Assembly (NCBI RefSeq): GCF_900114355.1
Contig: NZ_FOSS01000003.1
Coordinates: 369,215 to 433,214 of the forward strand
Length of the DNA: 64,000 bases
Source: Lysobacter sp. cf310
GTDB taxonomy: Bacteria > Pseudomonadota > Gammaproteobacteria > Xanthomonadales > Xanthomonadaceae
Direction of reading: 5' to 3'
Positions 18,435-22,041 of this stretch are shown piece after piece. The translations under genes were made by a program, and so were the position numbers. Below the pieces are notes generated by a model. That model was given only the letters and a program-made list of their open reading frames with translations, was not told the DNA's origin and made no database searches. Each line of letters starts with the position of its first letter. The stretch's first letter is position 1.

Positions 18435-20525
18435 ATGGCCACCAAGAAAGCCGCTAAGTCCCGCAACGGCGGCGCGACCCGCGACGGGCGCGGCCACGGC
18501 GACGAGCTGCATCAGAGCGCTGGCGGCAAGCACCCGCCACTGACCACCAATCAGGGCCTGCCGGTATCCGACAATCAGAACTCCCTGCGCGCGACCGAAC
18601 GCGGCCCGGGTCTGCTCGAAGACTTCATCCTGCGCGAGAAGATCACCCACTTCGATCACGAACGCATCCCGGAGCGCATCGTGCACGCGCGTGGCTCCGG
18701 CGCGCACGGCTACTTCGAGCTGAGCAAATCGCTCAGCCGCTACACCACGGCCGACATCCTCACCCAAGTGGGCCAGCGCACCCCGCTGTTCTGCCGTTTC
18801 TCCACCGTGGCCGGCGGCGCCGGCTCGATCGACACCCCGCGCGACGTGCGCGGCTTCGCGGTCAAGTTCTACACCCAGCAGGGCAACTGGGACCTGGTCG
18901 GCAACAACATCCCGGTGTTCTTCATCCAGGACGCGATGAAGTTCCCGGACGTGGTGCACTCGGTGAAGATGGAGCCCGACCGCGGCTATCCGCAGGCCGG
19001 CAGCGCCCACGACACCTTCTGGGACTTCATCTCGCTGACGCCCGAAGCCATGCACATGATCATGTGGGCGATGTCCGACCGCACGATTCCGCGCTCGCTG
19101 CGCATGATCGAAGGCTTCGGCGTGCACAGCTTCCGCTTGATCAACGCCAAGGGCGCTTCGACCTTCGTCAAGTTCCATTGGCGGCCCAAGCTGGGCCTGC
19201 AATCGACGCTGTGGGACGAGGCCTGCAAGCTGGCCGGCGCCGACCCCGACTTCCACCGCCGCGACCTGTTCGAGGCGATAGAAAACGGCGACTACCCCGA
19301 GTGGGAGCTGGCGGTGCAGCTGTTCACCCAGGAACAGGCCGACGGATTTCCGTTCGACCATCTCGACGCCACCAAGCTGATCCCCGAGGAACTGGTGCCG
19401 CTGACGGTGATCGGCCGCATGGTCCTGGATCGCTGGCCGGACAACTTCTTCGCCGAGACCGAGCAGGTCGCCTTCTGCCCCTCGCACGTGGTGCCGGGCA
19501 TCGACTTCTCCAACGATCCGCTGCTGCAGGGGCGCTTGTTCTCCTACCTGGATACGCAGCTGTCGCGCCTGGGCTCGCCCAACTTCCACCAGTTGCCGAT
19601 CAACGCGCCCAAATGCCCGTTCGCCAATCTGCAGCGCGATGGCCACATGCAGATGCGGGTGCCGCGCGGGCGGGTGAACTACGAACCCAGTTCGCTGGAT
19701 CCGCAATCGCCGCGCGAGACGCCGGCCGGCTTCCGCAGCGCCGGCGTGCCCAGCGACGACGGCATCAAGGGCCGCGTGCGTCCGGAGAGCTTCGCCGATC
19801 ACTACAGTCAGGCGCGCCAGTTCTACCGCAGCCAGACCGAATACGAGCAGGCGCACATGGCCTCGGCCTTGGTGTTCGAGTTGTCCAAGGTCGGCACCGC
19901 GCACGTGCGTGAGGCCGTCGTGGGCCACCTGCGCCACATCGACACCGCGCTGGCGCGCCGGGTGGCCGACGGCCTGGGTCTGGCCGCGCTGCCCCCAGCG
20001 CCGCCGGCCGCGGTCGCGGCCCAGGACCTGCCCGCGTCACCGCCGCTGCAGATCATCGGCAAGATGAAACCGACCCTGCAGGGGCGGTGCGTCGGCGTGT
20101 TGATCGACGACGGCTCCGACGCCGCCACGGTGCGCGCCTTGCGCAAGGCGGCCGAAGCCGCCGGCGCGCGCGTCAAGATCGTGGCGCCGCGCATCGGCGG
20201 CGCCAAGCTCAGCGACGGCAAGACCCTGCCCGCCGACGGCCAGCTCGCCGGCACGCCGTCGCTGGTGTTCGACGCGGTCGCCCTGGTGTTGAGCGACAAG
20301 GCCGGCAAGCGCCTGGCCAAGGAAGCCGCCGCGGTCGACTTCGTGCGCGACGCTTATGGCCACCTCAAGGCGATCGCGGCCGATGCCGGCGCGCAAGCGC
20401 TATTGAATGCAGGCGGCGTGGAGCGCGACGCCGGCGTGGTCGACGCGGGCGATACGCGCTCGTTCATCGCTCAGGCCATGAAGCGTCAGTGGGCGCGCGA
20501 GGCCAAGCTGCGTACGCTGGCGTGA
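18435..20525 (+). CDS. katE: Large-subunit catalase (HPII type)
   Basis: A 696-aa heme catalase of the large clade. Seen: the N-terminal lead specific to large catalases, catalytic His84 ([12 protein letters not shown]), the GNN Asn at 157/158, and the proximal heme-ligand Tyr371 (RLFSYLDTQ). After about residue 530 comes a class-I glutamine-amidotransferase/DJ-1-like domain typical of HPII enzymes. It disproportionates hydrogen peroxide in the cytoplasm. The ATG follows AGGAG. The 3' end is remarkable: its last 24 codons and 17 bases beyond the stop are repeated at 21951-22041, with only silent differences, beyond a lower-GC insert. The gene itself is intact. Confidence 0.95.
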
Positions 20526-20542
20526 TTCGCACAGGCGCAGCG
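20452..20542 (+). repeat. katE 3'-end direct repeat, copy 1
   Basis: First copy of a 91-bp repeat formed by the end of katE (24 codons, TGA, 17 further bases). It differs from copy 2 at four bases, all third codon positions (CGT/CGC, CAG/CAA, GAG/GAA, CGT/CGA). It marks the left edge of the insert. Confidence 0.95.
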
Positions 20543-20825
20543 TAGGCCGAAAATCGACTTGAATACAAGAATTGACGGAAGCGTGTTAGCTGACAAAACC
20601 TTCTGACCAGCCTTCCGTGAAACGCTTCGCCGGCTACTCGTCAATTTTGAAGTGATTGTCCATCACGAGACTTCGCGGCGTTGGAACGCCAAGCTCGCTG
20701 CTCGAAGAAATACCGCTGTGTCTCCTTGCCTGGCCGGCTCACAGAGTCAGCCGACCTCTTGCGAACAAACGTACTCAGTGAAGTAGCAAAGTCGAGTCGC
20801 ACACGATGCCACGTGCCGCAGGTAA

Positions 20826-20851
20826 CCGGAGGAACACTTAGTGTCCCCCGG
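20826..20851 (-). terminator. Hairpin after the insert's two-gene unit
   Basis: A GC-rich stem (CCGGGGGA-CAC / GTG-T-TCCTCCGG with one bulge and a TAA loop) lies 7 bases past the stop of the 53-aa peptide gene. It has no T-tract, so function as terminator is uncertain. Confidence 0.4.
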
Positions 20852-20858
20852 ACCGCTG

Positions 20859-21020
20859 CTAAAAGAAGATGGATTTAACAGCCCCGAGCACTGCCATTAT
20901 GGCAATGGGAGTGAGAACCACCTTCTGCTGCTTTCTGTCTCGAAGGTAATATAGCGATATACCGACTGAGGTCAGCGCCAACACCAGAAAGAGCAGCAGG
21001 AAGGTTACTGTCGTTGACAT
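20859..21020 (-). CDS. 53-aa membrane peptide, second gene of the insert
   Basis: A 53-aa peptide starting MSTTVTFLLLFLV and ending AVLGAVKSIFF. Seen: one hydrophobic segment at residues 5-25, a short basic loop RDRKQQK (27-33), and a second hydrophobic segment at about 35-50, a hairpin membrane topology with the loop probably cytoplasmic. It begins 6 bp after the stop of the secreted-protein gene, so the two are very likely one transcript. The ribosome-binding site is weak (AAG), which suggests translational coupling. No family recognised. A partner of the upstream secreted protein (immunity peptide, export aid or anchor) is possible but unproven. Confidence 0.6.
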   Translation of the reverse strand: MSTTVTFLLLFLVLALTSVGISLYYLRDRKQQKVVLTPIAIMAVLGAVKSIFF

Positions 21021-21026
21021 GGCGGC

Positions 21027-21836
21027 TTAATTCCCCCAACGGCCCGGCCCCCGGTATGTGGACCTTCTGCAGTTGTCACGAGCGTTACTAGAAAACGCTC
21101 TTATAACTTGCACGGCCGAGCCGGCGCAACCGACCGCTCCAACCCCAGTCTCCACGAAGGGGCATGAAACGGCGGCTCCAGCTATTCCGGTTATCGCGTT
21201 AACCGCGTCATCTGTCGCGTCGTCGCACTCTCCTTCGCGCCAAATCTCGAAGTAGCGCTTGTCATTGCTAATCTCTGTAGGCGTGTACAGATAGTTGTAC
21301 CACTGGTCGTCGTTTGGGTCGTAGCCCCGTATACCTAGTCGCTTGGAAAACTCGCCCGGAGGCAGGTGTCCCTCGTATCTGCCCGGGCCGCAGGGAGAGA
21401 GATCGCAAGCCCCGCCGGTGCTGCGGGGAGGCGCGAAGGTAATCGTAGGAGCCAGGAAGGTCTCGTAACTGCCACCCCAATTGTTGTAAGTGCGAATTTG
21501 GTTCGCTACCTCGGTGGCCAACTGAAGGTTTCCACCTGCGTAGCTCAGTGCCGCTTCGGCAAGTGGATAGTCGCCAGTCCCATTCGAGTTGCTGATGTAA
21601 AGGCGGTCCGTGGACCGGTCGTACAAGACCGTCTGTGATTCGTCTCCGTTTCCCACATAGACGAACGTTTGGCCGGTTACTCCGTTGTGCTCTGCGAAGA
21701 AGCGATCCGGTGCGGCGACATCTTCGAGAGGAGTCTCATGGTCCAAGTAGTCGCCCCCACCGTCACCTGCTAGGGCCTGCCCTGATAAAACAAGTAGGGC
21801 CGCGACAAGCAGCCCTCGATAGCCAATCTGCTTCAT
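21027..21836 (-). CDS. Secreted six-cysteine protein of unknown family
   Basis: A 269-aa protein with a clear signal peptide (MKQIGYRGLLVAALLVLSGQALA, cleavage about residue 23). The mature part is acidic, rich in Gly, Asp, Asn and Tyr, and has six Cys, four in the C-terminal third, giving up to three disulfides. A small hydrophobic Gly/Ala-rich stretch (TGIAGAAVSCPF) lies near 215-245. I cannot assign a family; there are no protease, lipase or nuclease motifs that I recognise. Codon use includes AT-ending codons unlike the neighbours, in line with transfer. Upstream, in the mRNA leader, is a perfect 9-bp hairpin (21854-21876). It precedes the small membrane-peptide gene in the same unit. Start ATG follows AAGG. 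Confidence 0.72.
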   Translation of the reverse strand: MKQIGYRGLLVAALLVLSGQALAGDGGGDYLDHETPLEDVAAPDRFFAEHNGVTGQTFVYVGNGDESQTVLYDRSTDRLYISNSNGTGDYPLAEAALSYAGGNLQLATEVANQIRTYNNWGGSYETFLAPTITFAPPRSTGGACDLSPCGPGRYEGHLPPGEFSKRLGIRGYDPNDDQWYNYLYTPTEISNDKRYFEIWREGECDDATDDAVNAITGIAGAAVSCPFVETGVGAVGCAGSAVQVIRAFSSNARDNCRRSTYRGPGRWGN

Positions 21837-21853
21837 ATCCTTATGACCTTAGC

Positions 21854-21876
21854 TTGAGCCGCGACTTGCGGCTCAA
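21854..21876 (-). promoter_or_regulatory. Leader hairpin before the secreted protein gene
   Basis: TTGAGCCGC-(5 nt)-GCGGCTCAA, a perfect 9-bp stem ending 18 bases upstream of the ATG. In the mRNA it would sit just before the ribosome-binding site. It could stabilise the leader, act as an operator on DNA, or be part of the element's end. Confidence 0.5.
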
Positions 21877-21950
21877 TGAGTCCATCACAGAGGTAGCACC
21901 TCATCAAGCGCCAGAAAATGTGTAGTTTTAGCTCCTCAGACGTGCGAGCT

Positions 21951-22041
21951 ATACGCGCTCGTTCATCGCTCAGGCCATGAAGCGCCAATGGGCGCGCGAA
22001 GCCAAGCTGCGAACGCTGGCGTGATTCGCACAGGCGCAGCG
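21951..22041 (+). repeat. katE 3'-end direct repeat, copy 2
   Basis: Second copy of the 91-bp katE tail, in the same orientation, lying just outside the terminator of ssrA. It encodes the same C-terminal residues ([19 protein letters not shown]) and stop. Probably the original chromosomal katE end, or the element's copy; the sequence alone cannot tell which. Confidence 0.95.

What the first reader, a model, noticed from the sequence alone, without database searches (positions are those of the whole stretch)
20452..22041. Lower-GC insert bracketed by a duplicated katE 3' end
The last 24 katE codons, the stop and 17 bases are present twice in direct orientation (91 bp), with about 1.4 kb of lower-GC, unrelated DNA between them. 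Gene-tail attachment sites restored by the incoming element are typical of integrative elements. katE is not a well-known attachment gene, and no integrase is carried, so this may be a small cassette mobilised in trans or a deletion remnant.
Basis: partly seen in the sequence, partly recalled or inferred. Interest (0 to 1): 0.75.

Follow-up and report, generated by a model that had tools for sequence, protein, structure and literature searches.

The report
Integrase-less cassette at the katE tail
A small foreign two-gene DNA segment sits cleanly behind a catalase gene in a Lysobacter-like bacterium, bracketed by two copies of that gene's last bases, and it resembles other tiny gene cassettes in this genus that lie at gene ends without carrying their own integration enzyme.

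Summary
In detail: 98 nt (92 identical) at 20445-20542 and 21944-22041 bracket 1.4 kb of 55.6% GC DNA in a 68.4% GC window. The closest relative at this locus, Lysobacter sp. Root916 (G013), has the empty site: katE, one tail, ssrA. So this is a precise insertion that leaves katE and ssrA intact. The cargo is a conserved pair of uncharacterised genes: a 269-aa secreted-looking protein and a 53-aa hydrophobic peptide. The insert has no integrase; the genome's only PF00589 hits are XerC and XerD. In congener G014 the same pair lies between tRNA-Asn tail copies. Further tRNA-Asn or tRNA-Lys tails, many bracketing small cassettes without a recognised integrase, occur in 5 of 16 and 6 of 17 congeneric loci; some carry defence genes, and two large tRNA-Asn elements carry integrases. 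Best reading: a CIME-like cassette integrated site-specifically by an integrase from elsewhere, with katE as an apparently unreported target. An isolated katE tail in another genus (G227) begins at the same codon. Against: no integrase linked to katE was found, 57 other katE loci show no second tail, and homologous recombination remains possible. Mobility is inferred, not shown.

The parts
18435..20525 (+). katE, 696-aa long catalase, open reading frame intact
   Evidence: Pfam Catalase, Catalase-rel and Catalase_C; last 30 aa identical to G013
20445..20542 (+). katE-proximal copy of the tail (left att-like copy): last 26 katE codons, stop and 17 nt
   Evidence: 92/98 identical to 21944-22041; 98.9% over 91 nt to the single tail of G013
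20543..21943 (.). inserted cassette body, 1401 bp, 55.6% GC
   Evidence: absent from the empty site of G013; GC
20859..21020 (-). 53-aa hydrophobic peptide (one membrane helix by eye), second gene of the module
   Evidence: ORF; similar small ORFs follow the 269-aa homologue in G013 and G014
21027..21836 (-). 269-aa protein with a signal-peptide-like start (by eye), first gene of the module, no Pfam family above cut-off
   Evidence: homologues 44-45% identical in G013 and G014, 30% in L. maris
21944..22041 (+). distal copy of the katE tail (right att-like copy), no katE body upstream
22133..22486 (-). ssrA (tmRNA), right neighbour of the insertion, intact by ARAGORN

Best explanation
A 1.5-kb cassette without integrase sits site-specifically at the 3' end of katE. 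It consists of a two-gene accessory module plus one copy of a katE tail that probably comes from another katE allele. Integration was a single crossover between the katE tail carried by the cassette (as a circle) and the chromosomal katE tail, catalysed by a recombinase not encoded in the cassette (in trans, in cis from a neighbouring element, or since lost). It leaves katE and ssrA intact and doubles the tail. It works like a CIME (cis-mobilizable element). Shown: insertion relative to an empty site, no integrase family in the insert, the same module bracketed by another gene's tail in a congener, tyrosine integrases beside tRNA-Asn in two larger elements. Inferred: site-specific recombination at katE, an integrase from elsewhere, and a role of the cargo in competition or defence.
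For: Empty site in G013. Tail pattern twice only in G000, once in G013, no hit in 393 of 395 family genomes. G014 carries the homologous module between tRNA-Asn tail copies, in tandem with a second cassette without integrase. Second tRNA-Asn tails at 5 of 16 and tRNA-Lys tails at 6 of 17 congeneric loci; 11 of these 14 tail copies begin at tRNA nt 26-32 by BLAST, the anticodon region. Tyrosine integrases lie beside tRNA-Asn in the elements of about 39 kb (G003, 37.5 bits) and 42 kb (G009, 20.7 bits, below the cut-off of 27.1). At tRNA-Lys a 2.4-kb tail-bracketed segment of G013 is missing at the same place in G000, exactly between the tails. The only PF00589 hits in G000 are XerC and XerD. G227, another genus, has an isolated katE tail that starts at the same katE codon, 26 codons before the stop, although intact katE genes stay conserved upstream of it. 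The 4 inner differences between the two tails are synonymous third positions.
Against: No integrase linked to katE was found. 57 other katE loci (3.5-17.6 kb downstream) show no second tail, leaving aside short or weak matches, and in the genome-wide tail search only G000 and G391 of 156 matching genomes have two matches, G391 for two full katE genes. The tail was not found in phage records or viral contigs (the second was one narrow exact pattern); the plasmid hits are 5 annotated catalases and one unrelated gene. With the two edge mismatches counted, 4 of 6 differences are third positions, not remarkable (about 0.10 by my arithmetic). In G013 the module has no bracketing tails but lies beside a diverged phoD-like fragment; of 10 further relative loci none has a bracketing repeat above shuffles. 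The FG-GAP gene of the G013 tRNA-Lys segment also lies behind tRNA-Lys in G010 without a second tail, so it may be an old neighbour that G000 lost. The G227 tail is a single case found after the fact and could be a remnant of a lost katE.
Confidence: 0.6

Rival explanations
1. Homologous (RecA-type) integration: DNA from a related strain, with a short katE tail next to the module, recombined with the chromosomal katE tail by ordinary homology, for instance after natural transformation. No site-specific recombinase is needed.
For: About 98 nt of homology is enough in principle (recalled). The two tails differ like two katE alleles. In G013 the same module lies next to a diverged phoD-like fragment and not between tails. 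No integrase in the insert, and only XerC and XerD among the PF00589 hits of G000.
Against: Does not by itself explain why 11 of 14 extra tRNA tails begin in the anticodon region, why integrases lie beside tRNA-Asn in two larger elements, or why the G227 orphan tail begins at the same katE codon.
Confidence: 0.2
2. Strict CIME: a larger integrative element (ICE, IME or prophage) once sat at katE and lost all but 1.4 kb by internal deletion.
For: Elements with and without integrase share tRNA-Asn in the genus. The 316 bp at 20543-20858 hold only short ORFs without a family hit.
Against: Seven typed frame pieces of that part gave no Pfam family at E<=1. The same compact module is found in G014 as its own tail-bracketed cassette, so it probably moves as such.
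Confidence: 0.15
3. Remnant of tandem katE genes: the far tail is what is left of a second katE copy that was replaced by foreign DNA.
For: Inner differences are synonymous, as expected for a former second gene. G391 shows that two katE genes can exist in one genome.
Against: G013 has one katE and one tail at the same place. None of 57 other katE loci shows a second tail.
Confidence: 0.04

Closest known systems
CIMEs, cis-mobilizable elements (review PMC5704250, passages read)
   Same: att copies on both sides, no integration or transfer genes, tandems with other elements at the same gene end (here G014, G009)
   Different: katE as target, only 1.4 kb, no relationship to an ICE or IME shown, same module at a different gene tail in another species
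ssrA genomic islands of Dehalococcoides without integration module (PMC3146451, passages read)
   Same: modules in tandem delimited by copies of a gene's 3' end; that paper counts 15 islands without integration module and suggests that they are CIMEs
   Different: there one target (ssrA), a 20-bp repeat and a serine recombinase in sister islands; here katE with a 98-nt repeat and tyrosine integrases in the larger tRNA-Asn elements
tRNA and tmRNA islands mapped by Islander (PMC4383910, start of abstract in the listing)
   Same: regenerated target gene and displaced fragment mark the ends
   Different: described with tyrosine integrases as catalysts and tRNA or tmRNA genes as targets; this cassette has no integrase and its target is a protein gene

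Membership tests
CIME | flanked by attL and attR, here direct repeats of a gene end | tested here: met
   98-nt repeat of the katE tail and empty site in G013; that the repeats are recombination sites is inferred
CIME | no integrase and no transfer genes | tested here: met
   two ORFs conserved in relatives and no Pfam family above cut-off; the 53-aa peptide has a sub-threshold TraE hit, 16.1 against 24.8 bits
CIME | derived from an ICE or IME, att sites used by the integrase of a related element | tested here: inconclusive
   no second tail in 57 katE loci; integrase-bearing elements at a shared site seen only for tRNA-Asn
CIME | excision or mobilisation demonstrated | not testable with these tools
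   needs PCR or sequencing of circular forms
Integron gene cassette | integron integrase in the genome | tested here: not met
   the two PF00589 hits pass the cut-offs of XerC and XerD and score below those of the integron integrase models; divergent ones could be missed
Integron gene cassette | attC site | not tested
   no attC model was run; the bracketing repeat is katE coding sequence
Integrative element with own integrase (ICE, IME, prophage, genomic island) | encodes a site-specific recombinase | tested here: not met

The most novel reading that the evidence does not exclude
Lysobacter genomes hold a shared pool of minimal cassettes of one or two genes without integrase (defence pairs and secreted-protein modules) that move between different gene tails, protein-coding ones included, by borrowing the integrase of whichever larger element uses that tail. 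The katE tail is such a site, used in at least two genera, and cargo modules switch attachment gene between species.
Probability: 0.3. Interest if true: 0.7.

Novelty: new variant of a known kind. Interest (0 to 1): 0.45.

Why it matters
Searches for genomic islands commonly start from an integrase (general knowledge), so cassettes of 1.5-3 kb bracketed only by gene tails are easily missed. In this genus some carry small defence or defence-candidate systems (PDC-M34, DarTG), so duplicated gene tails would be a place to look for new ones, including the uncharacterised secreted-protein and peptide pair. The pair of genomes G000 and Root916 gives clean presence and absence of a cassette at katE, and of a tail-bracketed segment at tRNA-Lys, on which excision and integration in trans can be tested directly.

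Tried and rejected
Chance repeat: rejected. Simple tandem duplication: rejected because of the empty site and because the tails differ like two alleles. ssrA as target: its 3' end is not in the repeat. G012, where katE and ssrA lie 33 kb apart: no katE tail beside ssrA in the fetched stretches, so no help. Viral, phage and plasmid collections with the insert: nothing; with the tail. Weak Pfam hits of the 53-aa peptide (TraE 16.1 bits and others) and of the 269-aa protein (UBA 11.8 bits), all below cut-off, were disregarded. Third katE-tail-like fragment, in G639: 18 residues, E 0.008, judged chance on reading the sequence. Repeat scan around relatives of the module: in L036-L045 the best scores (11-13) do not exceed the best shuffle of the same locus beyond chance; L033 (G013) likewise; L034 (G014) scores 26 against 13. 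G155/L. maris has a 48-nt intergenic repeat three times in 16 kb, not a gene tail as far as seen. DUF5343 in the genus: 2 of 20 genomes; the G007 locus was not examined for tails.

Rows left out of counts: short or weak matches of katE tails (13-30 nt or 9-23 aa) in some of the 57 loci, among them L219 (13 aa, reverse strand, E 8e-4) and L226 (E 0.010), counted as chance; L110 and L213, which hold no katE; L192, no tRNA-Lys gene; L154, L158 and L159, not the tRNA-Asn gene; G007, G008, G015 and G018 tRNA-Asn loci, not fetched as stretches; the 66% tRNA-Lys match in G018. Partial tRNA-Asn copies far from the gene in G001, G002 and G016 were not counted and not followed. Most tRNA stretches reach only about 7-13 kb downstream. 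Structure prediction of the 269-aa protein did not run.
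Full report
What is there. The window lies on contig 3 of a 4.73-Mb genome, G000. G013 is the best match at this locus among 20 congeneric genomes, G000 included, with katE 1935/2091 identical. katE (18435-20525, +) ends in a stretch that recurs 1499 bp downstream: 98 nt, 92 identical. Between the copies are 1401 bp of 55.6% GC DNA; none of 626 windows of that size, taken every 100 bp over the 64 kb, is as low. ssrA (22133-22486, -) follows. The insert has a 269-aa ORF that begins like a secreted protein and, just behind it on the same strand, a 53-aa hydrophobic ORF. Neither has a Pfam family above cut-off or a PADLOC hit.

It is an insertion. In G013 katE, a single tail and ssrA lie together. 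A 45-nt pattern for the tail with up to 3 mismatches hits 2 of 395 family genomes: G013 once, G000 twice. The katE frame and ssrA are intact in G000.

Which tail is native. Tail 1 (katE side) differs from G013 at 1 of 91 nt and tail 2 at 5 of 86. Of the six differences between tail 1 and tail 2, four are synonymous third positions inside the repeat and two are first positions at its left edge. By my arithmetic four of four third positions has probability about 0.012, four or more of six about 0.10. Tail 2 therefore looks like the end of another katE allele, but this is suggestive only. If so, the crossover lay near the stop codon and the imported copy is the distal one, contrary to the usual picture in which the element restores the gene end.

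The module elsewhere. Relatives of the 269-aa protein are found in 12 of 297 family genomes, G000 included, several of them weak. In G013 and G014 (44-45% identity) a small hydrophobic ORF like the 53-aa peptide follows it, so the pair is a conserved module. In G014 it lies between two copies of the tRNA-Asn 3' end, directly behind another cassette (trypsin-like peptidase) also bracketed by tRNA-Asn tails: tRNA-Asn at L050 4966-5042, copies at 7000-7045 (46/46) and 8702-8730 (28/29). In G010 a remnant lies about 1.1 kb behind tRNA-Leu without a second tail. In G013 it lies between a phoD-like gene (named by eye) and a 134-aa gene, next to a diverged fragment of about 140-148 bp of a phoD-like gene, without tail copies; G000 has other DNA at that place. 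In the 10 loci L036-L045 no bracketing repeat stood out from shuffles. So tail bracketing of this module is shown in two genomes only, G000 and G014.

A wider habit. A T-arm pattern scan of G000 (99 sites against 42 for the reversed control) showed duplicated tails for tRNA-Asn and tRNA-Lys, besides a tandem pair 190 bp apart taken for two tRNA genes. tRNA-Asn loci fetched from 16 congeneric genomes: 5 have further tail copies (G000, G003, G009, G011, G014). G003 and G009 have elements of about 39 and 42 kb with a tyrosine integrase beside the tRNA (PF00589 37.5 bits, and 20.7 bits, the latter below the cut-off). G000 and G011 have single cassettes of 1.6 and 1.5 kb, and G009 one of 3.5 kb behind its large element. 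tRNA-Lys loci of 17 genomes: 6 have further tails (G000, G003, G011, G012, G013, G014), at 1.6-10 kb. Of the 14 extra tails, 11 begin at tRNA nt 26-32 by BLAST; the others begin at 19, 37 and 54. Cargo includes an HEPN_Swt1/DUF5343 pair matching the PADLOC candidate PDC-M34 (G000, tRNA-Asn) and DarT-DarG with an IS3-like element named by eye (G009); others have no family hit (G011, tRNA-Asn). Not all are minimal: the 10-kb tRNA-Lys insertion of G011 holds a phage portal gene, and integrase-like ORFs that I suspected by eye next to tRNA-Lys in G003 and G011 gave no Pfam hit.

Presence and absence at tRNA-Lys. In G013 the tRNA is followed by a 2.4-kb segment with one FG-GAP protein, a tail, a 1.6-kb segment, a tail, and the phoD-like gene. 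In G000 the DNA behind the tRNA continues directly with the start of the second segment (96% over 1.0 kb), so the first is missing exactly between the tails. Which way it went is open: in G010 the FG-GAP gene also lies behind tRNA-Lys, without a second tail, so G000 may have lost it. Whether it occurs elsewhere in G000 was not searched.

Is katE an attachment gene? Own-tail copies were sought in 57 other katE loci with 3.5-17.6 kb downstream, in 56 genomes; none was accepted, some short or weak matches being taken as chance (22 loci, DNA only; 16 and 19, DNA and protein). In the genome-wide search with the last 30 residues, 156 of 395 family genomes match and only G000 and G391 have two matches; those of G391 are two full genes. 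One isolated katE tail was found, in G227 of another genus, which has no other match. It begins at the same katE codon as tail 2, 26 codons before the stop, although intact katE genes stay conserved upstream of that codon. Its left neighbour gene is conserved in the genus up to its stop codon; its right flank is not found in the 22 katE loci compared. It may be a second use of the same site or the remnant of a lost katE. One paper search asked for katE with integrase and attachment terms: 42 papers held at least four of five terms, 12 were listed, and no listed title or abstract start names katE as an attachment gene; passages of one of them, PMC2647930, did not either. The library is open-access only.

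Mechanism. I favour site-specific integration of a cassette without integrase (0.6). The only PF00589 hits in G000 are XerC and XerD; divergent tyrosine integrases could be missed (the one in G009 is below the cut-off), and serine recombinases were not searched. Homologous integration of imported DNA is the main rival (0.2), deletion of a larger element at katE the next (0.15). [quoted passage not shown] The cargo's function is unknown; by company (defence genes in some sister cassettes) and build (secreted-looking protein with small hydrophobic peptide) a role in competition or defence is my guess.

Verdict. A real, clean and well-bounded insertion, of a kind known in outline, with an unusual target gene, a very small size and a module that is bracketed by a different gene's tail in another species.

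Noticed in passing
L142 1842-3471 (G000:C6, behind tRNA-Asn): A 1.63-kb, 51% GC cassette in the window's own genome, bracketed by a 48-nt exact copy of the tRNA-Asn tail and carrying an HEPN_Swt1/DUF5343 pair (PADLOC candidate PDC-M34).
   Followed up: partly
L050 4966-8730 (G014): Tandem of two cassettes without integrase at tRNA-Asn, one with a trypsin-like peptidase, one with the window's module.
   Followed up: yes
L143 7685-11223 (G009): DarT-DarG cassette bracketed by tRNA-Asn tails behind a 42-kb element, with an IS3-like transposase gene between.
   Followed up: partly
L049 602-4618 (G013), L176 (G000), L179 (G010): Two tail-bracketed segments at tRNA-Lys in Root916; the first is missing at that place in G000, while its FG-GAP gene lies there without a second tail in G010.
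   Followed up: partly
L092 4727-4806 (G227:C16): Isolated katE tail without katE body, starting at the same codon as tail 2 in the window.
   Followed up: partly
L049 7051-7198 (G013): Diverged fragment of a phoD-like gene between that gene and the two-gene module; origin unclear.
   Followed up: partly
L054 6992, 9581, 12497 (G155, L. maris): A 48-nt intergenic repeat three times in 16 kb around the module homologue.
   Followed up: no
L154 1879-1946 (G001:C1:1489378-1489436): A partial tRNA-Asn copy (from nt 19) about 3 Mb from the tRNA-Asn gene; similar partial copies in G002 and G016.
   Followed up: no
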